A stretch of 48,872 nucleotides of DNA from Eubacteriales bacterium (GCA_028693155.1 JAQUVY010000006.1:1-48872), one strand, 5' to 3'; counted from the stretch's first letter, positions 215 through 19,948 are shown. Made by a program: numbers and translations. Notes: generated by a model not told the origin, from the sequence alone.

Positions 215-1687
215 TCAGCTTTCTTCGGTGATTTGCGGCTGCGCCGCGGGTGCCTCCTGCGGGCAAATCACCGTCACAGCAAAGGTCACCGCGACTCCCA
301 GCACCATGGCAATCACGCCAGCCGTGGGAGAATCCACAAAGGTGAACACGCCCCAGCGCGGCAGCAAATTCAGCAGCACCGCAGCGCCAAAGCCCGTCAG
401 CATTCCCGCCCAGGCGGCGGCCTTGCCGGTGCGCCGGTTCCACAGCCCCAGCAGGAACGGCCCCAGGAACGCGCCTGACAGCGTGCCCCAGGAGATGGAC
501 ATCAGCGTCACGATCGTCTCAATCTTAAACACCGCCAGCAGCACCGACACGGCAACAAACGCGCCGCACAGCACACGCATCAGCAACTTTACCTTCTTCT
601 CCGGCATCGCGGGGCAAAAGACTCCCTTGATCAGATCCATCGACAAAGCCGAGCTGGCCGTCAGCACCACCGAGGACAGCGTGGACATGCTGGCCGACAG
701 CACCAGGATCACCACCACCCCCAGCAGGATCTCTCCGCCCACGCTGCCCAACAGCGCCGTGTTGAGCATGGTCGGCACGATGGAATCCACATTTGCCGGC
801 ATTTCCTGCATATACAGCCGACCAAACACGCCCAGAAAATAAGCGCCGCCGCCCACCACCAGCGCAAACAGCGTGGAAATGACCGTGGCTTTATTGATGG
901 ACTTCTCATCCCTTATGGCATAAAATTTGTGAATCATCTGCGGCAGACCCCAGCTGCCCAAAGAGGTGAGCAGAACCAGGGAAATCAGCTTCCACACATC
1001 GGTGGTGCGAAACAGGGAGGTCAGGTCCGGGTCGACGGCAAAGAGCTTGTCCATGCCCGCCGCGAAGCCGCCCACCGCAGGGTTGGAGACCACCTTGACG
1101 ATCACCAGCGCCACACCCACGATCATAATGATGCCCTGGAAAAAATCGGAAAGCGCGGTGGCGAAATAGCCGCCCATGACCAGATAAATCGCCGTAAGCA
1201 CGGCCATGCCCAAAATGCAATAAATAAACGGGATGCCAAAAGCCGCTTCAAAAAGGTAACTCAAGCCCTGATAGACCGAAGCCGAATACGGAACCATGAA
1301 AACGAAAATGAGCAGCGCCGAAAAGATCTTCAGGTTTCGGCTGCCGAAGCGCGCCTCAAAGAACTCCGGCATGGTGCTGACCCCCAGCTCGTGGGTCATA
1401 CGGCGGGTTTTCTTGGCCAGCACCAACCACGCCAGCAAGCTGCCGATCAACGCGTTTCCGATGCCGATCCATACGGCAGACAGGCCAAAGTTCCATCCGA
1501 AACGCCCGGCATAGCCAATAAAAATGACAGCCGAAAAATACGTTGTGCCATAGGCAAACGCACTCATCCACGGGCCCACGTTGCGCCCGCCGAGAAAGAA
1601 GTCTTTTAGGCTGCTGGTTCGTTTGGAGGAGTAGATCGCGATGGCGATCAAAATTGCGGCGTACACGCCAAAGAGCAAAAATTGCAT
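215..1687 (-). CDS. Sodium:solute symporter (SSS family)
   Basis: Start MQFLLFGVYAAILIAIAIYSSKRTSSLKDFFLGGRNVGPW; multi-TM; SSS motifs. ORF-track start at 1822 is probably too early. Confidence 0.9.
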   Translation of the reverse strand: MQFLLFGVYAAILIAIAIYSSKRTSSLKDFFLGGRNVGPWMSAFAYGTTYFSAVIFIGYAGRFGWNFGLSAVWIGIGNALIGSLLAWLVLAKKTRRMTHELGVSTMPEFFEARFGSRNLKIFSALLIFVFMVPYSASVYQGLSYLFEAAFGIPFIYCILGMAVLTAIYLVMGGYFATALSDFFQGIIMIVGVALVIVKVVSNPAVGGFAAGMDKLFAVDPDLTSLFRTTDVWKLISLVLLTSLGSWGLPQMIHKFYAIRDEKSINKATVISTLFALVVGGGAYFLGVFGRLYMQEMPANVDSIVPTMLNTALLGSVGGEILLGVVVILVLSASMSTLSSVVLTASSALSMDLIKGVFCPAMPEKKVKLLMRVLCGAFVAVSVLLAVFKIETIVTLMSISWGTLSGAFLGPFLLGLWNRRTGKAAAWAGMLTGFGAAVLLNLLPRWGVFTFVDSPTAGVIAMVLGVAVTFAVTVICPQEAPAAQPQITEES

Positions 1688-1759
1688 AGGGGTATCCTGC
1701 CTTTCTTCCATGCTGCTGAAAATACCCGGTAAAAATCCGGCTACCATACTACGTTTTCG

Positions 1760-1788
1760 ATTATACCTTGCCCGAAGAAGTGATGCAA
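1760..1788 (-). promoter_or_regulatory. Sigma-A-like promoter for the symporter
   Basis: Minus strand TTGCAT-17 nt-TATAAT upstream of the start at 1687. Confidence 0.65.
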
Positions 1789-1860
1789 CCCCGGATTCGG
1801 CGGCATCTTTTCTTTTTTGCAAATTATTGCTATACTTAAAAAAAGCAAGGAGGCTCTCCC

Positions 1861-2136
1861 ATGTCCAATGCCGCTGCTTATCCCGTTTCCAAGCTTACCC
1901 GCCCGGGTGTTTCCATTGCCGCGTTGGTCTGCGGTCTGGTGGGGTTTTTGCTCAATCCGCTCTAGCTGGTTTTCGTCGCGGCGGTCGTGCTGGGCATCGT
2001 GGAGCTTTGCCAGCGGGCACCGGGCAAGGGCATGGCCACGGCCGGCCTTTTGCCGGGCATCGCTTCGGGCACCGTGCAATTGATCGTTGATCTTGTCCTG
2101 AGCGTATTTACGATGGGTCTGTGCTTTTTCATTTAA
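1861..2136 (+). pseudogene. DUF4190-like small membrane protein interrupted by an in-frame TAG
   Basis: RBS AAGGAGG then MSNAAAYPVSKLTRPGVSIAALVCGLVGFLLNPL*LVFVAAVVLGIVELCQRAPGKGMATAGLLPGIASGTVQLIVDLVLSVFTMGLCFFI; TAG at 1963-1965, same frame open to TAA at 2134-2136. Confidence 0.7.
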
Positions 2137-2150
2137 CCCATACACAGAAC

Positions 2151-2187
2151 AACCCCGCCTAAGTGCGAAGTGCACTTCGACGGGGTT
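2151..2187. terminator. Probable bidirectional terminator between the DUF4190-like gene and thrS
   Basis: AACCCCG cct AAGTGC gaagt GCACTT cga CGGGGTT followed by T-rich sequence; convergent genes on both sides. Confidence 0.55.
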
Positions 2188-2214
2188 ACCTTTTATTGCG
2201 TTATATTTTATCGG

Positions 2215-4122
2215 TTAAAAAATCACTTTATCCGCGATCTCCTTGCCGGCGGCGGCAAGGAAGTCGTCCACGGACATGGAGACCGTATCCTCCGCGCCGC
2301 GCTTGCGCACCGCCAAAGTGCCTTCCTCCACCTCTTTATCGCCCAGCACCAGCAAATAAGGCACCTTCTCCAGACGGGCCTCGCGAATCTTGAAGCCGAT
2401 CTTCTCGTTGCGGGCATCTACCTCCGCACGCACGCCCGCCGCATCCAACCGCTTGGCAACGTCAGCCGCATATTCCTGCGCGCGGTCGGTGATGGTGAGC
2501 AGCTTGACCTGCACCGGTGCCAGCCACAGCGGGAACGCGCCGGCAAAATGCTCGGTGAGAATGCCGATGAAGCGCTCGATAGAACCGAAAACCACGCGGT
2601 GGATCATGATGGGACGATGCTTTTCGCCGTCTGCGCCCACGTACTCCAGCTCGAAACGCTCAGGCAGCTGGCTGTCCAGCTGCACGGTGCCGCACTGCCA
2701 GGTACGACCCAGGCAGTCCTCCAGATGGAAGTCCAGCTTGGGGCCGTAAAACGCGCCGTCGCCCTCGTTGATGGTGAAGCTCTTGCCCATCTCGGTGATG
2801 GCTTCCTTCAGCGTGTTTTGATTTTCCTCCCACTCCTCTTCGCTGCCGATGTGATCCTTGGGCATGGTGGACAGCTCAATGTCATATTTTAAACCAAAGA
2901 GGGAATATACCTCGTCAAAAAGGCGAACCACACCCTTGATCTCGTCCTTCATCTGATCGCGCGTCATAAAGATATGCGCATCGTCCTGGGTGAAGCAGCG
3001 CACGCGGAACAGCCCATGCAGGGTACCCGAGGCCTCATGGCGATGCACCAGACCCAGCTCGCCGCAGCGCAAGGGCAGGTCGCGGTAGGAATGCGGCTCT
3101 GCCTTGTACACCAGCATTCCGCCGGGGCAGTTCATGGGCTTGACCGCGAACTCCGTCTCGTCGATGACGGTGGTGTACATATTTTCTTTGTAGTGATCCC
3201 AGTGGCCGCTTCTCTCCCACAGTTGGCGGTTCAGGATGATGGGCGTGGAGATCTCCGTATAGCCATAGCGCTTATGCACCTGACGCCAATAATCGATGAG
3301 GGTGTTTTTCAGGGTCATGCCCTTGGGCAAAAAGAACGGGAAGCCGGGGCCCTCGTCCATCAGCAAAAACAGACCCAGCTCCTTGCCGAGCTTGCGGTGG
3401 TCGCGCCGCTTGGCCTCTTCAATGCGGGTAATATAGGCGTCCAGATCGGCCTTCTTGTCAAACGCGGTGGCGTAAATGCGCTGAAGCATCTTGTTCTTCT
3501 CATTGCCGCGCCAGTACGCGCCCGCCAGCGACATGAGCTTATAGGCCTTGATGCCGCCGGTGCTTTTCAAGTGCGGCCCGGCGCACAGGTCGGTATAATC
3601 CCCTTGTTTATAGAAGGAGATCACGGCGTCCTCAGGCAAGTCGCGGATGAGCTCCACCTTGTAGGGCTCTCCCTTTTCCTGCATAAAGGCGATGGCCTCT
3701 TCGCGGGGCAGTTCAAAGCGCTCCAGGGGCAGATCTTCCTTGATGATCTTCTTCATCTCCGCCTCGATGGCCTCCATGTCGGCGGGGGTAAATGCGCGCT
3801 CGGTGTCAAAATCGTAGTAAAAGCCGTTCTCAATGGCCGGGCCAATGGCCAGCTTCGCCTCGGGGAACAGGCGCTTTACCGCCTGCGCCATCACGTGGGA
3901 CGCCGTATGGCGATAAACCGCGCGCCCTGCCTCATCGGCAAAGGTCAGCGCGTTCAAAACGCAGTCCTTCTCTAATACGGTTGAGCTCTCATGCATCTGT
4001 CCGTCGATCTCCACGGCCAGCGTGTGGCGCGCCAGCCCCTGGCTGATCTGAGCGATTACGTCAATGGCACGGCTTCCGGCCGCAAATTCCCTTTTTGATC
4101 CATCCTTCAGGGTTGCAAACAT
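2215..4122 (-). CDS. thrS: Threonyl-tRNA synthetase
   Basis: TGS domain start MFATLKDGSKREFAAGS; TASHVMAQAVKRLFPEAKLAIGP; class II motifs; T-box leader upstream. Confidence 0.97.
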   Translation of the reverse strand: MFATLKDGSKREFAAGSRAIDVIAQISQGLARHTLAVEIDGQMHESSTVLEKDCVLNALTFADEAGRAVYRHTASHVMAQAVKRLFPEAKLAIGPAIENGFYYDFDTERAFTPADMEAIEAEMKKIIKEDLPLERFELPREEAIAFMQEKGEPYKVELIRDLPEDAVISFYKQGDYTDLCAGPHLKSTGGIKAYKLMSLAGAYWRGNEKNKMLQRIYATAFDKKADLDAYITRIEEAKRRDHRKLGKELGLFLLMDEGPGFPFFLPKGMTLKNTLIDYWRQVHKRYGYTEISTPIILNRQLWERSGHWDHYKENMYTTVIDETEFAVKPMNCPGGMLVYKAEPHSYRDLPLRCGELGLVHRHEASGTLHGLFRVRCFTQDDAHIFMTRDQMKDEIKGVVRLFDEVYSLFGLKYDIELSTMPKDHIGSEEEWEENQNTLKEAITEMGKSFTINEGDGAFYGPKLDFHLEDCLGRTWQCGTVQLDSQLPERFELEYVGADGEKHRPIMIHRVVFGSIERFIGILTEHFAGAFPLWLAPVQVKLLTITDRAQEYAADVAKRLDAAGVRAEVDARNEKIGFKIREARLEKVPYLLVLGDKEVEEGTLAVRKRGAEDTVSMSVDDFLAAAGKEIADKVIF

Positions 4123-4147
4123 GATCCCTTTCTCCTTTTCCTTGAAA

Positions 4148-4368
4148 TAAAAAAACCGCCCCTTCTGCTGCATATCACAGCAAAAGGGGCGGTCAAAGTT
4201 CCGCGGTTCCACCCTTCATTTCGGCTCTTATGCGCTGTAGAGGGCGCACCCATGCCGCTGTGGAGGTGGTCTTGGGCATCTCCGCGGCCAGATGCTTGCA
4301 GCTTGGTGCATCTGTCTCTGTTAGCCGGGTAAAATGCTTACTCTTCTCCGTCCTTGCGGGAATTATTG
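4148..4368 (-). promoter_or_regulatory. T-box leader of thrS
   Basis: Minus strand carries AGGGTGGAACCGCGG (T-box), a GAGTA motif, an AGATGC...GCATCT stem-I arm and ACC triplets usable as a Thr specifier; terminator hairpin ACCGCCCC...GGGGCGGT plus a U-rich tail at 4142-4193. Confidence 0.92.
4155..4193 (-). terminator. T-box intrinsic terminator
   Basis: ACCGCCCCTTTTGCTGTG..CAGCAGAAGGGGCGGT followed by TTTTTTTT on the minus strand. Confidence 0.9.
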
Positions 4369-4374
4369 TCTGTC

Positions 4375-4403
4375 ATGATACCCCACGCGCGGGGGATTGT
4401 CAA
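4375..4403 (-). promoter_or_regulatory. thrS promoter
   Basis: TTGACA-17 nt-TATCAT on the minus strand, just upstream of the T-box leader. Confidence 0.75.
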
Positions 4404-4411
4404 GGGGCTTT

Positions 4412-5347
4412 TTATCTTGCTTCGCGGTCATAGGGCACCGACAGGGATGCCGGCGCGCCGTCGCTGCGCTTTCCTCCGACCTTGCCCGTGCCAAAGATCA
4501 TCACTGCCAGCGTAAGCAGGTAAGGCAGCATATTGAAGAGCTGTGTGGGAATGCTGATCCCCACCGCCTGCAGGCGCAGACCTAAAATGGCAACCAACCC
4601 GAACAAATACGACCCCAGCAGCGCCTTCCACGGATTCCAGCGGGCGAAAATGACCAGCGCCACGGCGATCCAGCCCTGACCGGCCGAAATGTTCTCCATC
4701 CAGGTGTTGTTGTAAGCCAGCGTGAGAAACACGCCCGCCAGCCCCGCCATCATGCCGCCGAAAATGGTGCAGCCATATTGCACGGCAAACACGTTGACAC
4801 CGGCTGCGTCCGTCGCTGCCGGGTTTTCCCCCGCGCTGCGGATCTTCATGCCCAGGGAGGTTTTGGAAAGCACAAACCACAGCACCGGAACCATCAATAT
4901 GGCCACATAGACCAAGGGTGTCTGGTTAAACAAGGCTTCCCCCACCACGGGGATGGAACGCAGGCCCGGAATGGGCGCGTTATGAAAGAGCGTATCGGTG
5001 ACCACGCCCACCACGTCTTTTCCCAAAAAGGCCGAAAGGCCCGTTCCGAAAATGGTCAGCGCCAGTCCGCTCACCACCTGGTTGGCTTTGAGCGTGATGC
5101 ACAAAAAGGCATGGATGGCGGCCATCAGCCCGCCGGCCAACACGCCCACCAGAATTGCCAGCAGCAAGCTGTTGCTTTTTACCGCGGTAATGTAACCCGC
5201 TACGGCGCCTACCAGCATCATGCCTTCCACGCCCAGGTTCAGGATGCCGCCCTTTTCGGTGACGATCTCGCCCAAAGAAGCCAGCAAATACGGCGTTCCG
5301 GCGGCCACCATGGCGGTCATAAGACCAGTAATCATACTAAGATCCAT
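4412..5347 (-). CDS. ABC transporter permease (BMP/nucleoside-type, BPD_transp_2)
   Basis: GTPYLLASLGEIVTEKGGILNLGVEGMMLVGAV motif; follows a second permease and a dual-ABC ATPase. Confidence 0.9.
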   Translation of the reverse strand: MDLSMITGLMTAMVAAGTPYLLASLGEIVTEKGGILNLGVEGMMLVGAVAGYITAVKSNSLLLAILVGVLAGGLMAAIHAFLCITLKANQVVSGLALTIFGTGLSAFLGKDVVGVVTDTLFHNAPIPGLRSIPVVGEALFNQTPLVYVAILMVPVLWFVLSKTSLGMKIRSAGENPAATDAAGVNVFAVQYGCTIFGGMMAGLAGVFLTLAYNNTWMENISAGQGWIAVALVIFARWNPWKALLGSYLFGLVAILGLRLQAVGISIPTQLFNMLPYLLTLAVMIFGTGKVGGKRSDGAPASLSVPYDREAR

Positions 5348-8276: not shown

Positions 8277-9362
8277 TTACTTGGCCTCAACGCTGCCAAC
8301 AACGCCTTCCACGAACCACATCATGTTTTCCATCTCGTCATCGGTCATCTTCTGGCCTTCGGCGATCTTGACGTTGCCGTCCTGATCCTTGATGGGGCCG
8401 GTGAAGACATCCCAATCACCGCTCTTGATCAGCGCTTCCTTCTCGGAAATCAGCGTCTTGGTCTCATCGGTGACCGAGGGGCCGAACTGGTCCAGCAGCA
8501 CCAGGCCATTGTCCAGGCCGTACCAAACGCGCTCATTGGAGAACTTGCCCTCCATGGCGTCCTTGATCACGGTGCGATAGTAATCGGTGAAGTTCCAGAT
8601 GGGGCTGGTCAGGTAACCCTTGGGGGCCTTGGCGATCATGGAGCTGTGATAGCCGGTGGAGTACGCTCCGGCGGCCTCAGCGGCGATGACGCCCGCGGCG
8701 GAATCCTGATGCTGGGCGACCACGTCGCAGCCGGCAGCCAGCAAGGATTCGGTTCCCTGCTTCTCAATGGCAGCGTCTACCCAGGTGTTGGTCCACACCA
8801 CGTTGACGGTGGCTTCGGGGTTGACCGAGCGCACACCCAGCGTGAAGGCGTCGATACCACGAACGGTCTCGGGGATGGGCATGGCGGCGGTATAGCCGAT
8901 CTTGTTGGTCTTGGTGGCCTTGCCCGCGGCAATGCCGGCCAGGTAACGAGCCTGATACATACGGCCCATGTAGGTGCCCAGGTTGGCGGCCGTCTTATAA
9001 CCAGAGAAATGCATGAAGTTTACATCGGGGTACTTCTCAGCCATTTCCACGGTGTAATCCATGAAGCCATAGCTGGTGGTGAAGATGAGCTTGCAGCCCT
9101 TCTTGACCAGGTTCTCGATCTGGGTGGCGCACTCAGCACCCTCAGGTACGCTCTCAACATAGTAGGTGGTGATGCCCAGCTCTTTTTCCACAGCCTGACG
9201 AGCCAGGTCGTGCATATAGGTGAAGCCCTCATCGCCCACGGGTCCGACATAGATAAAGCCGACCTTAAAGTTCTTGGGGCTGTCGCTCTGGCAGCCCGAC
9301 ATGGTCAGGCCGAAGCTCGCCAGCAGCGCCACGCACAGCAGCACGGACAGAATCTTTTTCAT
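8277..9362 (-). CDS. BMP-family substrate-binding lipoprotein
   Basis: Signal peptide with lipobox MKKILSVLLCVALLASFGLTMSGCQSD; BMP family motifs; upstream of the ABC genes. Confidence 0.92.
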   Translation of the reverse strand: MKKILSVLLCVALLASFGLTMSGCQSDSPKNFKVGFIYVGPVGDEGFTYMHDLARQAVEKELGITTYYVESVPEGAECATQIENLVKKGCKLIFTTSYGFMDYTVEMAEKYPDVNFMHFSGYKTAANLGTYMGRMYQARYLAGIAAGKATKTNKIGYTAAMPIPETVRGIDAFTLGVRSVNPEATVNVVWTNTWVDAAIEKQGTESLLAAGCDVVAQHQDSAAGVIAAEAAGAYSTGYHSSMIAKAPKGYLTSPIWNFTDYYRTVIKDAMEGKFSNERVWYGLDNGLVLLDQFGPSVTDETKTLISEKEALIKSGDWDVFTGPIKDQDGNVKIAEGQKMTDDEMENMMWFVEGVVGSVEAK

Positions 9363-9391
9363 GATATTCCTCCTCCAAATATTGGTCACAT

Positions 9392-9970
9392 TTATTCGTC
9401 GGCGAAAGTAATGCTTTCACCGTCGATGCTGGAAATACGGGCGAGGGATTCCACCCTCACGCCCTGAGCGCGCAGCCTCTCTCCGCCGGGCTCATAGGCC
9501 TTCTCAATGACAATGCCCACGCCGCTCACCTGCGCACCGGCTTGTGCCACGATGTGCATCAGGCCCTGCGCCGCCGCGCCCAGCGCCAAAAAATCATCCA
9601 CAATGAGCACATGATCTTCCGGGCAGATATACTTTTTGGATACGGTAACGGCGTAATCCGTGTTTTTCGTGTAGGAATGCACCTGCGCCTGATAATAATC
9701 ATCGCCGGCGCTGTTGGTTCCCCGGTTTTTCTTGGCAAACACCAGCGGCACGCCAAAGCGCAGCGCCGTCAGCACGCCAAAGGCAATGCCCGAGGCTTCC
9801 ACCGTAAGCACCTTGGTCACCGGCACCCCGTCAAAGCGGCGCACGAACTCCGCAGCGATTTTGTCGGCCAGCTTGGCATCGATCATATGGTTGAGGAAAT
9901 CCCCCACCTTGATGACACCGCCGGGCAGCACCTGCCCCTGCTCCACAATGCGCTGTTTCAGTTCTTCCAC
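9392..9970 (-). CDS. xpt: Xanthine phosphoribosyltransferase
   Basis: GTG start: VEELKQRIVEQGQVLPGGVIKVGDFLNHMIDAKL...; PRPP motif VLIVDDFLALGAAAQGL; RBS AGGAGA. The ATG at 10033 would overlap the promoter. Confidence 0.92.
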   Translation of the reverse strand: MEELKQRIVEQGQVLPGGVIKVGDFLNHMIDAKLADKIAAEFVRRFDGVPVTKVLTVEASGIAFGVLTALRFGVPLVFAKKNRGTNSAGDDYYQAQVHSYTKNTDYAVTVSKKYICPEDHVLIVDDFLALGAAAQGLMHIVAQAGAQVSGVGIVIEKAYEPGGERLRAQGVRVESLARISSIDGESITFADE

Positions 9971-10004
9971 AAATCGTTCTCCTTTATCGCCGGAATATGC
10001 TGAT

Positions 10005-10033
10005 ATCATAATGCAAGCGCCCATAAAAATCAA
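10005..10033 (-). promoter_or_regulatory. Promoter of xpt / BMP-ABC operon
   Basis: TTGATT-17 nt-TATGAT on the minus strand, about 35 nt upstream of the GTG start. Confidence 0.65.
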
Positions 10034-10087
10034 TAGGAATTCCGAACGTTTTTACCGATTTACGCCGCAACGTTTAGCAAAGTGTCA

Positions 10088-10717
10088 CTATAAAATACGC
10101 GCAGCCACTTGTTTCCAGATTCTCTCCTGGGTATGGGCGATGGGCTGGGCTGCGTCTATCATGACCAGGCGTTCGGGCTCACGATGCGCCAGCAGTGCGT
10201 ATGCCCGGGCTACCTTCTCCTGCAGGGAAACACCGGCCATCTCCAGCCGATCGGGCTGTTCTCCCCGGCTGCGGCTGCGCTGCACCGACGCCTCGGCGTC
10301 CAGCGCAAGATAGACCGTAAGATCCGGAACAAGGCCGTCTACCGCCGGGGCGTTGATGGCACGGACCAAGTCCTCCCCCATGCCTCGGCCATAGGCCTGA
10401 TACGCCAGGCTGGAGTCCAGAAAGCGATCGCACAGCACAACCTCGCCCCGGGCAAGTGCAGGGCGGATCACCTGGCGCACATGCTGCGCGCGGGCGGCGG
10501 CATAAAGATAGGCTTCGGTGACCGCGTCCATTTCGGCATTATCCCGATCCAGCAAAATGGCGCGGATCTTTTCGGAAATGGGGCAGCCGCCCGGTTCACG
10601 CGAAAGCAGTACGGTGCGCCCTTCTTGGCGCAGACGCTGCGCCAGCAAATTCATCTGCGTGGTTTTACCCGATCCGTCGGTTCCCTCAAAGGTAATAAAC
10701 AGCCCCTTCATGCTCAT
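10088..10717 (-). CDS. tmk: Thymidylate kinase
   Basis: MKGLFITFEGTDGSGKTTQMNLLAQRL P-loop; LCDRFLDSSLAYQAYGRG. Confidence 0.96.
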   Translation of the reverse strand: MSMKGLFITFEGTDGSGKTTQMNLLAQRLRQEGRTVLLSREPGGCPISEKIRAILLDRDNAEMDAVTEAYLYAAARAQHVRQVIRPALARGEVVLCDRFLDSSLAYQAYGRGMGEDLVRAINAPAVDGLVPDLTVYLALDAEASVQRSRSRGEQPDRLEMAGVSLQEKVARAYALLAHREPERLVMIDAAQPIAHTQERIWKQVAARIL

Positions 10718-13366: not shown

Positions 13367-13394
13367 TTGACTTTTATGTGGTTTTTCATATAAT
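13367..13394 (+). promoter_or_regulatory. Promoter of the CotH-VTC-DUF4956 operon
   Basis: TTGACT-16 nt-TATAAT. Confidence 0.75.
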
Positions 13395-13464
13395 AGATAG
13401 ATACGCCGCGCCGCGCGGCGATTTTGATACGAATGACGCCGGCAACACCGGCTTTGAGGAAAAA

Positions 13465-16400
13465 ATGCAGGATCATAACTCTCCATCTCGCCGCCAGCAG
13501 GCTGCGGAACGTCAGGCTGACCGCGCATCCCGCCGGGGGATTCGTTTCTTTCCGGACATTTTGGTCATTCTGTTGGCCATAGCCGTTTTGGTGATCACGC
13601 TGCGCCCCGGCCACGTCAGCACCTCGGCAAAAGGGGATGAAACGGTGGATCTGGGCACTTCGTCCGTATCGGGCGATGGCTTGATGCTCAGTGAGGTGAT
13701 GGCGCTGAACAAGGGCGCTTACGCCTCGGCCGACGGCAATTATTATGACTGGATCGAGCTGTATAACCCCACCTCCGACGCCATCAATCTGGAAGGCTAC
13801 GCGCTGAGCGACAACATGGAAAAGCTCTCCAAGTATGTGCTCCCCTCCCATGTGATCGAAGCGGGCGGCTACGCCATCATTTTTGCCTCGGGCTTAAGCG
13901 GCGACGCCATACCCGCCGGGGAACTTCACGCCGGCTTTAAGCTCAGCTCCATGGGTGAAACGGTTTATTTAAGCGACGCCCAGGGACACATTATGGATCA
14001 AACCACCTACGACGCGCTGGGCATTGACCAAACCTACGCCCGCACCGCCAAGGACGAATGGGAAAAGCTTGACTACTTTACCCCGCTTTGTCCCAACACC
14101 AAGGAGGGCTACTCCAAGTTTTTGAGCACCCGCGTGGCGCCCGAGTCCCCCGTGAAGGTCAACGAAATCATGAGCAGCAACTCCATCACCACGGCCGATG
14201 AAGATGGAGATTATGTGGATTGGATGGAGCTGCACAACACCTCCGATCAGCCGGTGAGCCTGTATAACTACGGGCTGTCCGACGACTCCGCCCGCACAAA
14301 GCGCTGGGTATTCCCGGATGTGACCCTGCAGCCCGGGGAATATTTGGTCATTTATCTTTCGGGCAAAAACAAGGTGGATCCGGCCGGGAAGCTGCATGCC
14401 AACTTCCGCATGAGCTCCTATCAGGGCACGTTGTATTTTTCCGATCCCAAGGGTGCGATCATTGAAGAAGTGCACATTGACGAGTTGGAGACCGACGCCT
14501 CCTATGGCCGCATAGAGGGCACGGATCAATGGCAGGTGTACAGCCACCCCACCCCGGGCTTCGCCAATACCGAGGCGGGATTCAACGCGCTGCAGCCCGC
14601 CATGTATGCCGACATGACCTCCCCCGTCATCATCAGCGAAGTGATGAACAACAACAAAAGCTTTCTCAAGGAGAGTTCCAGCGCCGAGGCCTACAGCTGG
14701 GTGGAGCTCTATAACCGCTCGGACGCCAGCGTGTCTCTGGCGGGCTGGAGCCTGAGCGACAACACCGGCAACTACGGGAAATGGCATTTTCCGGACGACG
14801 CTTCCATTGCGCCCGGCCAATACATGACCGTTTTCACCTCGGGGCTCGATAAAACCGATTCGGCCGAGGGGTCAAAAAAAAAATATCATACGAACTTTAG
14901 CATCAGCGCCATGGGCGAAGCTCTGATCCTGGCAAACGCCGACGGCGCTTTGGCCGACCGGTGCATGGTGCCGTGGACCGAGCAGGATATGTCCTACGGC
15001 CGGGCGCCGGACACGGTGATCTTTAAGTACATCACCTCCCCCACGCCAGGCGAAAAAAATAACGACGGCTATCTGGGGTTTGCGCCGCAGCCCGTGTTCA
15101 GCCAAGTGGCGGGGTTATATGACGGCGCGCAAAATGTAGAGCTGCAGTCGGGCGGCGTGGACGGGTGCACCATTTATTATACGTTGGACTGCTCCGACCC
15201 CACCAACGCCTCCTCCCAATATACAGGCAGCGCCATCAGCTTTGACAAGACCACGGTGGTGCGCGCCCGCGCCTACGCCGAGGGCTATCTGCCAAGCAGA
15301 GTGGCCACGGCTACCTACCTGGTGGATGAGGTACATACCCTGCCCGTCATCAGTCTGGTGACCGATCCGAAAAATCTGTTTGACGAAACCACCGGCATTC
15401 TGGTAAAAGGGCCCAACGCCGAAGAAAAATACCCTTATAAGGGTGCCAACTTCTGGCAAAAATGGGAAGTGGAATCCCAGCTGCAGATGTTCGACGAGGG
15501 CGGCGCTCTGGTTCTGAATCAGCCTTCCGGTCTGCGCCTGTTCGGCGCCTATTCCCGGACGAACGATATGAAAAACTATGCACTGTTCGCCCGCGGGCGT
15601 TACGGCAGCACCTCCTTTGATTACCCGCTATTTTCCGAGCTGCCCTACACCAGCTACAAATCCTTTGTGCTGCGCAACGGGGCTTCGGAATGGAACGTTT
15701 CCAAGATCCGCGATGTGGTGCTGGCCTCTTTGGTGCGCGACACCACCGATTTGGATACGCAAGCCTCCCAACCCTGCGTTGTTTTTCAAAACGGCGAGTT
15801 TTGGGGCGTGTACTTTATTCAGGAAAAGCTGAACGAAGCCTATTTCGAGCAGCATCACAACGTGCGCGCGGAGTCGCTGAACCTGCTGGTGGGCAACGGC
15901 AACAGCCGCTCCACCACCCAGGCGGGCTCCAACCAAGACTATCAGGAGCTGATTTCCTGGGTAAAAGAGCACGACCTGAGCGTGCAGGAGAACTATGATT
16001 ACGTAGCCGGCAAGGTGGACATCCAAAACTATATGGATTACGTCATCTGCGAGATGTATGTATATAACACCGATACGGGCAACATCAAGTACTGGATGAG
16101 CAACGACAAAGACGGCAAATGGCGATGGATCTTTTATGATGTGGACTGGGCGTTCTGGCCCACGCGAGAAAACCGCGACGGCATCTCCCGATACCTCAAC
16201 GAAAAGGGACACGGCGTCAACAGCATGTTTGACAACAGCCTGATCCGCGGGCTGCTCAATAACGCCGCCTTCCGCCAGCAGTTTATCGAGCGCTTCGCCT
16301 ATCACGTCAACGTGACCTTTGAGCCTGAGCGCGTGGTACAGCGCATCACAACCTACGCCTCGGCCATCGACGGCGAAATGGCGCGGGAAAAGGAAAAATG

Positions 16401-16545
16401 GAAGTACGGCAACTACGACGCCTGGGTTGCGGCGGTAGACCGCGTGAAGAACTACGCCCGCAAGCGACCCGAATATGTAAAGGCACAGCTGAAAAGCTAT
16501 TTCAACATCAGCGATGAGGAAATGGCGCGGCTATTCCCCCAATAG
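13465..16545 (+). CDS. Membrane-anchored CotH kinase family protein with three lamin-tail domains and a chitobiase/FN3-like domain
   Basis: TM near N-terminus (FPDILVILLAIAVLVITL); three MLSEVMALN/KVNEIMSSN/VIISEVMNN...WIELYN repeats; CotH core KSFVLRNGASEWNVSKIRDVV...YDVDWAFW. Confidence 0.9.
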   Translation: MQDHNSPSRRQQAAERQADRASRRGIRFFPDILVILLAIAVLVITLRPGHVSTSAKGDETVDLGTSSVSGDGLMLSEVMALNKGAYASADGNYYDWIELYNPTSDAINLEGYALSDNMEKLSKYVLPSHVIEAGGYAIIFASGLSGDAIPAGELHAGFKLSSMGETVYLSDAQGHIMDQTTYDALGIDQTYARTAKDEWEKLDYFTPLCPNTKEGYSKFLSTRVAPESPVKVNEIMSSNSITTADEDGDYVDWMELHNTSDQPVSLYNYGLSDDSARTKRWVFPDVTLQPGEYLVIYLSGKNKVDPAGKLHANFRMSSYQGTLYFSDPKGAIIEEVHIDELETDASYGRIEGTDQWQVYSHPTPGFANTEAGFNALQPAMYADMTSPVIISEVMNNNKSFLKESSSAEAYSWVELYNRSDASVSLAGWSLSDNTGNYGKWHFPDDASIAPGQYMTVFTSGLDKTDSAEGSKKKYHTNFSISAMGEALILANADGALADRCMVPWTEQDMSYGRAPDTVIFKYITSPTPGEKNNDGYLGFAPQPVFSQVAGLYDGAQNVELQSGGVDGCTIYYTLDCSDPTNASSQYTGSAISFDKTTVVRARAYAEGYLPSRVATATYLVDEVHTLPVISLVTDPKNLFDETTGILVKGPNAEEKYPYKGANFWQKWEVESQLQMFDEGGALVLNQPSGLRLFGAYSRTNDMKNYALFARGRYGSTSFDYPLFSELPYTSYKSFVLRNGASEWNVSKIRDVVLASLVRDTTDLDTQASQPCVVFQNGEFWGVYFIQEKLNEAYFEQHHNVRAESLNLLVGNGNSRSTTQAGSNQDYQELISWVKEHDLSVQENYDYVAGKVDIQNYMDYVICEMYVYNTDTGNIKYWMSNDKDGKWRWIFYDVDWAFWPTRENRDGISRYLNEKGHGVNSMFDNSLIRGLLNNAAFRQQFIERFAYHVNVTFEPERVVQRITTYASAIDGEMAREKEKWKYGNYDAWVAAVDRVKNYARKRPEYVKAQLKSYFNISDEEMARLFPQ

Positions 16546-16554
16546 GAGTACAAT

Positions 16555-17253
16555 ATGGCAAAATACAAGGGGCGCAGTTTGCGCTATGAGCTCAAGTACA
16601 TGATCAACGAAGCCGAGTATCTGTGGGTACGCGACCGTTTGGCCGCGCTGATGCCCACGGACAATCACGCCGACCCCACCACCCGGGAATACCACCTGCG
16701 CAGTCTTTATTTTGACGACATCAACAACAGCGCCATGTGGGAAAAACAGGACGGCGTGGAGTTTCGCGATAAATACCGCATTCGAACCTATAAAATGGGC
16801 AAGGGCGACATCGTGCTGGAGAAAAAATCCAAGCTGGGCATGATGACGGCAAAGGATTCCGCACCCATGACCCGGAATCAGTACGAGGATCTGGTGTTCG
16901 GCGACTATAATTTTCTCATGCCCTCCAAGGAACCGCTGTTTGAGGAGTTTTACGGCAAAATCCGCACGCAGCTGCTCAAGCCCGTGGTCATCGTGGACTA
17001 CGACCGTGAGCCCTACATCTACCCCATCGGCAATGTGCGCATCACCTTTGACCGCAATCTGCACTCCGGGCAGTTTTCCACCGATATTCTTTCGGGCGAA
17101 GTGACCAGCGTGCCGGTGTTTGACGCGGGCGCGCTCATCATGGAGGTCAAGTATGACGACATTCTGCCGCCGCAGGTGCGGGCTTTGCTGGGAGGCATGA
17201 CCGCCCAGCGCATGGCAATCTCAAAATATACGCTTTGCAGAAGATATCATTGA
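16555..17253 (+). CDS. VTC-domain protein (polyphosphate polymerase-like)
   Basis: LRYELKYMI; YHLRSLYFDD; FRDKYRIRTY; VLEKKSK; RITFDRNL; LIMEVKYD, characteristic VTC tunnel basic/acidic motifs. Confidence 0.9.
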   Translation: MAKYKGRSLRYELKYMINEAEYLWVRDRLAALMPTDNHADPTTREYHLRSLYFDDINNSAMWEKQDGVEFRDKYRIRTYKMGKGDIVLEKKSKLGMMTAKDSAPMTRNQYEDLVFGDYNFLMPSKEPLFEEFYGKIRTQLLKPVVIVDYDREPYIYPIGNVRITFDRNLHSGQFSTDILSGEVTSVPVFDAGALIMEVKYDDILPPQVRALLGGMTAQRMAISKYTLCRRYH

Positions 17254-17296
17254 CAAACAATGATTTTGGATCACCAACAGGAGGAAAGGAACCACT

Positions 17297-17992
17297 ATGA
17301 ACAACGGTGCATTAAGCGCAACTGACGTCATCAAAAACTCGGTGCTGGAGGCCTTTACCAGCAGCGGCTCCATGAGCGTGGGGCAGCTGCTGCTGGGGCT
17401 GGCGCTGTCGCTGGCCTGCGGCCTGTACATCTTTTTTATCTACAAGCGCACGTTCAACGGCGTGCTGTACAGCCGCAACTTCAATATTTCCCTGCTCATG
17501 CTCACGCTGGTCACGGCGCTGATCATCCGCACCATTTCGTCCAGCATCTCGTTGTCGCTGGGCATGGTGGGCGCGCTGTCCATCGTCCGCTTCCGCACGG
17601 CGGTCAAGGATCCGCTGGACACCACGTTCATGTTCTGGGCTGTGGCGGCAGGCATCACCATCGGCGCCGGGTTCTATGTGATCGGGTTGGTGGGATCGGT
17701 CATTATCGGCCTGTTCCTCTACTTCTTCAACATGATCAAATGGCGCTCCAGCTACCCCTACCTGCTCATCGTGCGCCATGATTTCTCCTGCGCCAACGAA
17801 GTGAGCTATGCCATGCGCAAGCTGCCCCGCGGCAGCCGCCTGAAGTCCAAGACTGTCACCCGCAACGGCGTGGAGATCACCATGGAGGTGCGCCTGCCCG
17901 GCGAAAACACCCACATTGTCAACGACTTCCTGGCCATCGGCGGCGTGTTCGACGCCACGCTCATCTCCTATCAGGGCGATTACGGTGCATAA
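17297..17992 (+). CDS. DUF4956 membrane protein
   Basis: SLSLGMVGALSIVRFRTAVKDPLDTTFMFWAVAAGITIGAGFY, characteristic of DUF4956. Confidence 0.88.
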   Translation: MNNGALSATDVIKNSVLEAFTSSGSMSVGQLLLGLALSLACGLYIFFIYKRTFNGVLYSRNFNISLLMLTLVTALIIRTISSSISLSLGMVGALSIVRFRTAVKDPLDTTFMFWAVAAGITIGAGFYVIGLVGSVIIGLFLYFFNMIKWRSSYPYLLIVRHDFSCANEVSYAMRKLPRGSRLKSKTVTRNGVEITMEVRLPGENTHIVNDFLAIGGVFDATLISYQGDYGA

Positions 17993-17995
17993 AAA

Positions 17996-18205
17996 ATGAG
18001 CGACAAAGAGAACGAGCGTTTTGTGCGTACTTATAAGCAGGGCGGCGGGTTTTGCGCGGCGATGGAGATCTGGGTGGATCGCCAGACCGGCGTCAACTAT
18101 CTTTACCGGGAATCAGGTTACAGCGGCGGTCTTTCTCCCCTGCTGGACACTGAGGGGAAACCGGTCGTAACGCCCCTGTCAGATCACTGGGATCAACAAT
18201 GGTAG
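17996..18205 (+). CDS. DUF6440-like small protein
   Basis: ERFVRTYKQGGGFCAAMEIWVDRQTGVNYLYRESGYSGGLSPLLDTEGKPV; starts 3 nt after the DUF4956 stop. Confidence 0.75.
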   Translation: MSDKENERFVRTYKQGGGFCAAMEIWVDRQTGVNYLYRESGYSGGLSPLLDTEGKPVVTPLSDHWDQQW

Positions 18206-18210
18206 AAAAA

Positions 18211-18242
18211 AGAGGCGGTGTCACAGGACACCGCCTCTTTTT
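18211..18242 (+). terminator. Intrinsic terminator
   Basis: AGAGGCGGTGTCACAGGACACCGCCTCT followed by TTTTTCT. Confidence 0.9.
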
Positions 18243-18263: not shown

Positions 18264-19202
18264 TCAGTACACGAGCTGATGACGGAAATAAAAGAAGCTG
18301 TCGCTATGGCTGTGAATGGACAGCACCCGGCTGTGGGGGTGCGCGGTGGAGGAAAAGCCTCTTCCATTTTGTCCCAGGGTCAGCGCTTTTCCGCCGATAT
18401 ACAAGCAGGAATAATCCAGAAACAGTTCATCCATCATGCCCAAAGATAACAGATGGTGCATATATCCCGGGGTTTCCACCAGCATGGTATCCACGCCCAT
18501 CCGCTTCAAAATGGCCATGCTTTGCGCGGAATCTGGGGTGTCTTTTCCTGTGACGATCACGGGAATTGCCTGGGAATCGGCCGCCGTCTCCCTCGCCTGA
18601 ACTTCCCAGTCGCCGTCTGCGTTGATCAACCGGCAGGGCGACGTCATGTGCTGGCGCACATACTCCGCCCCCGCATGGGAGGTGCAGATCATAACGGGCA
18701 CTTCCGGGGTGTGAAACAGGACATGGTCATACGGTACATCCGTGCCGTCCAGCGTCATCACCACGTTCCACGGAACGGCAGACTTGCCCATGGCAAGCCG
18801 CGCGTCCTCCAGATCTTGGTCAAAGATGTGCCCCGTAAAGTCACTTTCCGCATTGATGGTCCCCGTGCCCACGGCGATGGCATCCGCCGCGCCGCGCAGC
18901 AAATTTAGGATCCACCAGTCGCTCATGGCGCCATCGGGATCCAGGCGGTTCTGGCGAGCAATCAGCGGCCCCTGCGGCGCGTCCTGAAAGGCGATCCGCC
19001 CGTCGATGGAAGTCACAAAAGAGGCGTACAGATACGGCCGGTCGGCCCGCAGGCTTTCAAAGGTCAGCTCGCCGTATACCTTTTTGATCTTGTCGCAGCT
19101 GATGGGATGATATTCAAAGGCAGACAAGCGGTCGCTTTGATAGATCTGCCGCAGGCCCACCTGCTCCACGGTCAAGGGCATTTTGGGTAATGATGTCGCC
19201 AT
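18264..19202 (-). CDS. RibD C-terminal / dihydrofolate reductase-like family protein
   Basis: RPYLYASFVTSIDGRIAFQDAPQGPLIA; DAIAVGTGTINAESDF; VDTMLVETPGYMHHLLSLGMMDELFLDYSCLYIGG. Confidence 0.8.
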   Translation of the reverse strand: MATSLPKMPLTVEQVGLRQIYQSDRLSAFEYHPISCDKIKKVYGELTFESLRADRPYLYASFVTSIDGRIAFQDAPQGPLIARQNRLDPDGAMSDWWILNLLRGAADAIAVGTGTINAESDFTGHIFDQDLEDARLAMGKSAVPWNVVMTLDGTDVPYDHVLFHTPEVPVMICTSHAGAEYVRQHMTSPCRLINADGDWEVQARETAADSQAIPVIVTGKDTPDSAQSMAILKRMGVDTMLVETPGYMHHLLSLGMMDELFLDYSCLYIGGKALTLGQNGRGFSSTAHPHSRVLSIHSHSDSFFYFRHQLVY

Positions 19203-19216
19203 GGTGCTCTCCTCCC

Positions 19217-19948
19217 TCAAATCAGGCTGCCGCCGCAGGCCCCAATGCATTCTCCGGTAACATAGCCGCTTTCGTCGCTGGCCAGGTACAGGGCCGCGGC
19301 CGCCATGTCATCCACCGTTCCCAGCTTCTGCAGGGGGTATATGGAGGCCATTTCGCGGACAAACGCTTCCTTCTCCTGGGGAGAGGACAAGCGCGCCTCC
19401 ACCATGGGGGTCATCACCAGCCCGGGATTGATGCAGTTCGCCCGGATGGCCGGTGCCTGCTCCGCGGCAATGCATTTGGTGAGCATGATAACCGCCGCCT
19501 TGCTTGGGCAATAGCTGATGCGCTCGGGAATGGGACGTACGCCCAAGTCGGAACCGAGGTTCACGATCGCCGCGCCGGGATGCATCTTCAGCGCGGGCAG
19601 CGCTGCCTTGCACATATGAAATACGCCGCCCACGTTAATGCGGAACTGACGCTCAAACTCTTCGGTGGTGGTGTGCTCCATATCGCCGATCCCCGTTACG
19701 CCGGCGCAGTTGACCAGGATATTGACCTTTCCAAACCGCTTAACCGCGGCCTCCACCACCGCCTGCGCGCTCTCATAGCACGTCAGGTCGGCCTGCAAAT
19801 AATCCGCCTGCGGGTGTTCCAGGCGCATTTTCGCCTCGATGCCGCAGCCGAATACCTGCGCACCCTCCTGCAAAAACCGCCGGGCGATGCCCTCGCCTAT
19901 GCCCGAGCTTGCCCCGGTAATGATCGCCGTTTTTCCTTCTAAACGCAT
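19217..19948 (-). CDS. SDR-family oxidoreductase
   Basis: GKTAIITGASSGIGEGIARRF; NCAGVTG; SYCPSKAAVIML (YxxxK); INPGLVMTPM. Confidence 0.93.
   Translation of the reverse strand: MRLEGKTAIITGASSGIGEGIARRFLQEGAQVFGCGIEAKMRLEHPQADYLQADLTCYESAQAVVEAAVKRFGKVNILVNCAGVTGIGDMEHTTTEEFERQFRINVGGVFHMCKAALPALKMHPGAAIVNLGSDLGVRPIPERISYCPSKAAVIMLTKCIAAEQAPAIRANCINPGLVMTPMVEARLSSPQEKEAFVREMASIYPLQKLGTVDDMAAAALYLASDESGYVTGECIGACGGSLI

What the first reader, a model, noticed from the sequence alone, without database searches (positions are those of the whole stretch)
13367..18242. CotH kinase - VTC polyphosphate-polymerase-like - DUF4956 - DUF6440 operon
Four ORFs sit between a clear promoter and a clear terminator with short gaps. 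CotH proteins are secretory-pathway-type kinases; VTC domains polymerise polyphosphate from ATP; DUF4956 is an uncharacterised membrane protein. I recall VTC, DUF4956 and CotH co-occurring in other bacteria, but the joint function is, to my knowledge, undescribed. Hypothesis: the cytosolic VTC enzyme makes a phosphate polymer, DUF4956 couples it to the membrane, and the outward-facing CotH protein (TM, then three lamin-tail domains and a kinase domain) modifies surface partners. Key VTC residues (RYELKY, KYRIRTY, EKKSK, MEVKY) and CotH DVD motif are intact.
Basis: partly seen in the sequence, partly recalled or inferred. Interest (0 to 1): 0.62.

Follow-up and report, generated by a model that had tools for sequence, protein, structure and literature searches.

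The report
Exported CotH kinase with polyphosphate machine
A gut-type bacterium carries a three-gene unit, widespread in Firmicutes, that probably makes polyphosphate inside the cell, passes it through a dedicated membrane protein and supplies it to a kinase-like protein on the cell surface; the grouping was known beside one type of sugar-polymer gene cluster, but its function has not been worked out.

Summary
The operon is real: promoter, exported CotH (ATG 13465; three lamin-tail domains, one chitobiase-C-like domain, CotH kinase fold), VTC polymerase, DUF4956, terminator. DUF6440 is a passenger: 5 of 200 phylum genomes carry it and only the window links it to VTC.

The linkage goes far beyond this genome. 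In 200 Firmicutes-level genomes VTC and DUF4956 occur in exactly the same 27, with equal copy numbers (34 and 34) and effectively always adjacent. Fifty of 52 genomes with an exported CotH also have VTC. CotH without a membrane segment was not seen beside VTC, apart from one frameshifted locus. Where CotH is not the neighbour, a secreted Cthe_2159 protein often is, as in this genome's second VTC locus.

VTC keeps every yeast VTC4 active-site residue compared and models onto VTC4. DUF4956 is an MgtC-like membrane protein with an ACT-like tail and an invariant basic motif. CotH keeps its phosphotransfer residues, but its subfamily has lost the adenine-sandwich tyrosine.

Best reading: a split VTC machine that makes and exports polyphosphate for a surface client. 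The gene set was reported in 2020 as Pel accessory genes, but Pel is present in only 3 of 55 VTC-positive genomes here. No function has been tested.

The parts
13367..13394 (+). sigma-70-type promoter TTGACT-16-TATAAT
   Evidence: 11/12 match, only + strand hit of that quality in the window; 2/1000 shuffled intergenic sequences reach it
13465..16545 (+). exported CotH-family protein, 1026 aa, N-in/C-out single TM
   Evidence: Pfam CotH, LTD x3, CHB_HEX_C_1; RBS GAGG before ATG
13549..13602 (+). transmembrane segment (residues 29-46) after a basic N-terminus
   Evidence: hydrophobicity KD17 = 2.94
14617..14964 (+). best-scoring of three lamin-tail domains (residues 385-500)
   Evidence: Pfam PF00932, three stretches
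15109..15309 (+). CHB_HEX_C_1 / Fn3_assoc-like domain (residues 549-615)
15532..16479 (+). CotH kinase domain; K703, D870, N873, D892 kept
   Evidence: PF08757; residues mapped on Bacillus CotH 5jd9
16555..17253 (+). VTC polyphosphate-polymerase-type triphosphate tunnel enzyme, 232 aa, no TM or SPX
   Evidence: PF09359; profile hit to VTC4 E 3.7e-15; model best match VTC4 3g3r
17297..17992 (+). DUF4956 membrane protein, 231 aa: membrane helices plus C-terminal ACT-like domain; invariant GMVGALSI-x-R98-F-R100 / K104-P106-D108
   Evidence: PF16316, alignment A3, AF2 model pLDDT 83, fold search
17996..18205 (+). DUF6440 protein, 69 aa; in the transcription unit but not part of the conserved system
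   Evidence: PF20037; 5 of 200 genomes, linked to VTC only here
18207..18242 (.). bidirectional terminator shared with the convergent gene at 18264-19250
   Evidence: 16-pair stem with T-run

Best explanation
A bacterial split version of the VTC machine. The cytosolic VTC enzyme polymerises phosphate from ATP into polyphosphate. The DUF4956 membrane protein receives the chain at an invariant basic mouth and passes it to the cell surface. There an exported client protein uses it: here an LTD-CotH kinase-like protein, elsewhere a short CotH or a Cthe_2159 beta-helix protein. Shown computationally: VTC family, fold and active site; obligate VTC-DUF4956 pairing; outward topology of CotH; association of exported CotH with VTC. 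Inferred: polyphosphate as product, DUF4956 as conduit, and CotH using the product as phosphoryl donor, ligand or substrate.
For: VTC matches yeast VTC4 (E 3.7e-15, best PDB hits 3g3r/3g3q, TM about 0.69). VTC4 K200, R264, R266, K281, K294, R361, R373, E426 and K458 correspond to window K14, R75, R77, K91, K100, R151, R162, E197 and K224, invariant in the 37-row alignment A4. VTC and DUF4956: same 27 of 200 genomes, 34 copies each, 32 within 500 bases on the same strand, the other two explained by an intervening CotH or contig ends. Both also ring in the same three of 14 control genomes. Among 80 named loci 79 have DUF4956 and 73 CotH, in several gene orders. Exported CotH: 50 of 52 genomes have VTC, against 0 of 4 genomes that have only short spore-type CotHs without a TM and neither G122 nor the frameshifted G370 counted. 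VTC sequence tracks partner type: 5 label changes on the tree over 100 labelled rows. Yeast VTC couples synthesis to translocation through a basic channel mouth (PMC9911596), and DUF4956 has invariant R98, R100 and K104.
Against: No activity measured; related tunnel enzymes are triphosphatases. DUF4956 has no resemblance to the VTC membrane domain, and its basic segment is modelled at low confidence. Short exported CotHs keep the tyrosine-tryptophan adenine sandwich, so at least they look like nucleotide users. Two genomes have an exported CotH without VTC (G128; G437 with a broken CotH). Genomes are related, so counts are not independent.
Confidence: 0.5

Rival explanations
1. The set is a regulatory or decorating module for exopolysaccharide synthesis (Pel and others): CotH phosphorylates a synthase, glycan or matrix protein, and VTC-DUF4956 is an energy or phosphate supply for it.
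For: Published beside pelDEADAFG in streptococci, clostridia and bifidobacteria, with regulation by phosphorylation suggested. Adjacent to glycosyltransferase clusters on plasmids and in C. perfringens NELoc-2.
Against: PelG over the family cut-off is in only 3 of 55 VTC-positive genomes, not including this one. No polysaccharide genes flank this operon.
Confidence: 0.25
2. The VTC protein is a triphosphatase or makes a different phosphorylated product; DUF4956 is an MgtC-like sensor or regulator through its ACT-like domain, not a conduit, and CotH is an ordinary ATP-using surface kinase.
For: Triphosphate tunnel folds include triphosphatases. DUF4956 carries an ACT-like domain typical of ligand sensing and a weak MgtC match. 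The genome already has PPK1.
Against: VTC-type lysines and arginines of the polymer tunnel are all kept and the best structural match is VTC4, not triphosphatases. Obligate pairing with exported proteins is not explained.
Confidence: 0.2
3. The LTD-CotH protein is a pseudokinase: a surface adhesin or scaffold, with the kinase fold binding polyphosphate or another ligand without catalysis.
For: LTD-type proteins replace the adenine tryptophan by F/Y and the tyrosine by V/E/D/N. LTD-only proteins sit beside VTC-DUF4956 at several loci.
Against: The catalytic aspartate, asparagine and metal aspartate are invariant in the LTD type.
Confidence: 0.2

Closest known systems
Yeast VTC complex (Vtc4/Vtc3/Vtc1)
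   Same: homologous tunnel polymerase with all compared active-site residues; fixed partnership with a membrane component
   Different: bacterial enzyme is a stand-alone domain without SPX or TM; membrane partner is DUF4956 (MgtC-like, ACT-like tail), not the three-helix VTC membrane domain; outlet would be the cell surface, not the vacuole
CotH-PPP-DUF4956(-DUF4832) accessory genes of Gram-positive Pel loci (PMC7112168)
   Same: same three core families, contiguous
   Different: here no Pel genes, CotH carries three lamin-tail domains, gene order CotH-VTC-DUF4956, and no DUF4832
Bacillus CotH spore-coat kinase (5jd9/5jda; PMC7821199)
   Same: kinase fold and phosphotransfer residues
   Different: Bacillus type is short, has no TM and is not next to VTC; window type is membrane-anchored, outward, with LTDs and without the adenine-sandwich tyrosine
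MgtC/SapB family
   Same: weak sequence match over the membrane core; MgtC is also reported to end in an ACT-like domain (own knowledge)
   Different: below the MgtC gathering score; DUF4956 is tied to VTC

Membership tests
VTC polyphosphate polymerase (PF09359) | sequence family above curated cut-off | tested here: met
   126.6 bits against 23
VTC polyphosphate polymerase (PF09359) | active-site basic tunnel residues and E426 of VTC4 | tested here: met
   nine residues matched, invariant in relatives
VTC polyphosphate polymerase (PF09359) | tunnel fold | tested here: met
   AF2 pLDDT 91.7, best match 3g3r E 5.6e-14
VTC polyphosphate polymerase (PF09359) | synthesis of polyphosphate from ATP | not testable with these tools
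   needs enzyme assay
Eukaryotic VTC complex | SPX domain and VTC three-helix membrane domain | tested here: not met
   232-aa protein with the VTC domain only
CotH kinase (PF08757) | family match and PKA D166/N171/D184 equivalents | tested here: met
   145.8 bits; D870, N873, D892
CotH kinase (PF08757) | Tyr/Trp adenine sandwich of Bacillus CotH | tested here: not met
   Trp replaced by Tyr, Tyr replaced by Asn (alignment-dependent); equivalent losses in all LTD-type relatives. A feature of ATP binding in the solved member, not of the family as curated
Pel accessory set (PMC7112168) | contiguous with pelDEADAFG | tested here: not met
   no PelG over cut-off in the genome; neighbours are housekeeping genes
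DUF4956 (PF16316) | family match above cut-off | tested here: met
   37.8 bits against 30.6
MgtC (PF02308) | score above curated cut-off | tested here: not met
   20.7 bits against 31.4

The most novel reading that the evidence does not exclude
Exported polyphosphate is the phosphoryl donor for kinases outside the cell, solving the problem of kinase chemistry where there is no ATP. VTC and DUF4956 make and export the donor, and LTD-type CotH has shed its adenine site while keeping its phosphotransfer residues.
Probability: 0.17. Interest if true: 0.92.

Novelty: new variant of a known kind. Interest (0 to 1): 0.6.

Why it matters
If right, bacteria have a vectorial polyphosphate synthase built from a VTC enzyme and an uncharacterised membrane family, dedicated to surface proteins. 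That would give DUF4956 a function, explain why exported CotH proteins travel with VTC, and make testable how a kinase can work outside the cell. The gene set also occurs in a C. perfringens enteritis-associated locus and in streptococcal, bifidobacterial and gut-commensal genomes.

Tried and rejected
Single-sequence search of the PDB with VTC found nothing; a profile was needed. DUF6440 as part of the system: rejected. A Pel-only explanation: rejected as general. VTC as a PPK1 replacement: not supported, since 10 of 27 VTC genomes have PPK1 and 17 do not. PolyP replacing ATP for all exported CotHs: weakened by the conserved adenine sandwich in short exported CotHs. Gene fusions linking VTC to DUF4956: none found; the one long frame (L060) reads VTC joined to the C-terminal half of CotH and looks like a decayed operon. 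DUF4956 membrane part: no PDB relative. My first home-made CotH profile missed true CotHs and was replaced.

Full report
What is there. The interval 13367-18242 holds one transcription unit: a strong consensus promoter, four co-directional ORFs with gaps of 9, 43 and 3 bases, and a 16-pair terminator hairpin shared with the convergent gene on the other strand. Pfam gives LTD x3, a CHB_HEX_C_1/Fn3_assoc domain and CotH for the first protein, VTC for the second, DUF4956 (plus a sub-threshold MgtC match) for the third and DUF6440 for the fourth. CotH starts at ATG 13465. Its basic N-terminus, a hydrophobic segment at residues 29-46 and a long C-terminal part predict N-in/C-out anchoring. The genes directly on either side are on the other strand, and the scanned neighbours are housekeeping or metabolic.

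Is the grouping more than chance? In 200 genomes of the phylum at least 90% complete, VTC is in 27, DUF4956 in exactly the same 27, with the same copy number in each (34 and 34). If independent, that overlap has probability about 10^-33, a figure that ignores relatedness. Thirty-two of the 34 pairs lie within 500 bases on the same strand; of the other two, one has CotH between and one has both genes at contig ends. In 14 named control genomes both families ring in the same three (Bacteroides ihuae, Corynebacterium glutamicum, Methanosarcina acetivorans). CotH is in 24 of the 27 and over the cut-off in 3 of the other 173 genomes. All three VTC genomes without CotH (G081, G125, G251) have Cthe_2159, which is over the cut-off in 16 of 27 VTC genomes against 2 of 173. 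Among 80 VTC loci from named records (mostly Clostridia and Paenibacillaceae), 79 have DUF4956 beside VTC, the other ending at a contig end, and 73 have CotH; gene order varies among CotH-VTC-DUF4956, CotH-DUF4956-VTC and VTC-DUF4956-CotH. Linkage kept through such reshuffling argues for function. DUF6440 is not part of it.

Exported versus non-exported CotH. A wider scan found CotH in 59 of 399 genomes. The first 200 had already been scanned for VTC; the newly found CotH genomes were scanned for it. Sixty-five CotH genes have an N-terminal hydrophobic segment; they lie in 52 genomes, of which 50 have VTC, and 44 of the 65 genes are within 3 kb of VTC on the same strand. Short spore-type CotHs (364-414 aa, no segment) are never beside VTC. 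Six genomes have only CotHs scored as lacking the segment: four have no VTC (G175, G189, G348, G379), G122 has an unlinked VTC with a Cthe_2159 neighbour, and G370 is a frameshifted locus beside VTC. Of the twelve genes scored as lacking the segment, four cannot be judged (G370; G117, broken; G000 C107, cut by the contig end; G369, start uncertain). Exceptions among exported CotHs: G128 (93% complete) and G437 (91% complete, broken CotH). I infer that exported CotH depends on what VTC-DUF4956 provides. This was sampled in one phylum plus controls.

VTC. A profile of relatives hits only VTC structures convincingly (3g3q E 3.7e-15). The AF2 model (pLDDT 91.7) best matches VTC4 with AppNHp-Mn or polyphosphate, ahead of triphosphatases. 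VTC4 K200, R264, R266, K281, K294, R361, R373, E426 and K458 are all present and invariant in alignment A4; R264, R266 and E426 are the residues replaced to inactivate yeast VTC (PMC9911596). That the other six matter is established knowledge of the VTC4 structure, not tested here.

DUF4956. The alignment shows an invariant block GMVGALSI-x-R-F-R followed by K104, P106 and D108. The model (pLDDT 83) has membrane helices and a beta-alpha-beta-beta-alpha-beta tail; fold search finds ACT and other ferredoxin-like domains for the tail and nothing for the membrane part, with no hit below E 0.001. That the basic block forms a cytosolic mouth for polyphosphate is inference by analogy with the basic belt in the yeast complex, and the block is modelled at low confidence.

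CotH. The profile hits Bacillus CotH 5jd9 (E 5e-78). The equivalents of PKA D166, N171 and D184 (as described in PMC12189002) are kept as D870, N873 and D892. The adenine sandwich is kept in spore-type and nearly all short exported CotHs (Trp in all 32, Tyr in 31), but in the LTD type Trp becomes Phe/Tyr and Tyr becomes V/E/D/N; the Tyr column depends on the alignment. So a non-adenylate donor is conceivable for the window type but is not indicated for exported CotHs in general.

Partner choice. On a VTC tree of 112 loci, partner classes (LTD-CotH, short CotH, Cthe_2159) need 5 changes over the 100 labelled rows. The same genome has a second VTC-DUF4956 pair followed by a Cthe_2159 protein.

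Prior art. Whitfield et al. (PMC7112168) described CotH, poly-phosphate polymerase, DUF4956 and DUF4832 as contiguous accessory genes of Pel loci and suggested regulation by phosphorylation. Lepp et al. (PMC2879425) list two VTC genes, each followed by a membrane protein of DUF4956 size called tubulin/FtsZ-like, and CotH in C. perfringens NELoc-2; reading those as DUF4956 is my inference. No functional study of the set was found in the held library. Pel is a minority context here: 3 of 55 VTC genomes.

Verdict. A widespread, unassayed module: a bacterial VTC polymerase with an obligate DUF4956 membrane partner and an exported client. The polyphosphate synthesis-and-export reading is the best supported (about 0.5). 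What the client does with the product is open.

Noticed in passing
L001/L051 (G000 contig C140, about 1650-4902): Second VTC-DUF4956 pair in the same genome, followed by a secreted Cthe_2159-type protein instead of CotH.
   Followed up: partly
L168 (G000 contig C107, 6266-7195): Another CotH gene in the same genome, cut by the contig end, so any VTC neighbour cannot be seen.
   Followed up: no
L060: 8519-9859: An ORF that reads VTC joined in frame to the C-terminal half of CotH, with no DUF4956 beside it; looks like a deletion inside a VTC-DUF4956-CotH operon.
   Followed up: partly
window 13404-13420: Perfect 7-pair all-GC inverted repeat CGCCGCG-CCG-CGCGGCG in the 5' leader between promoter and CotH start.
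   Followed up: no
L124 (record titled Candidatus Methanomethylicus mesodigestus), 8556-10717: Archaeal VTC-DUF4956 pair with a lamin-tail protein between them and no CotH found in the locus.
   Followed up: no
L091, L092, L100, L108, L112 and others: LTD-only membrane-anchored proteins directly after DUF4956, a possible further exported client of unknown role.
   Followed up: partly
   Followed up: no
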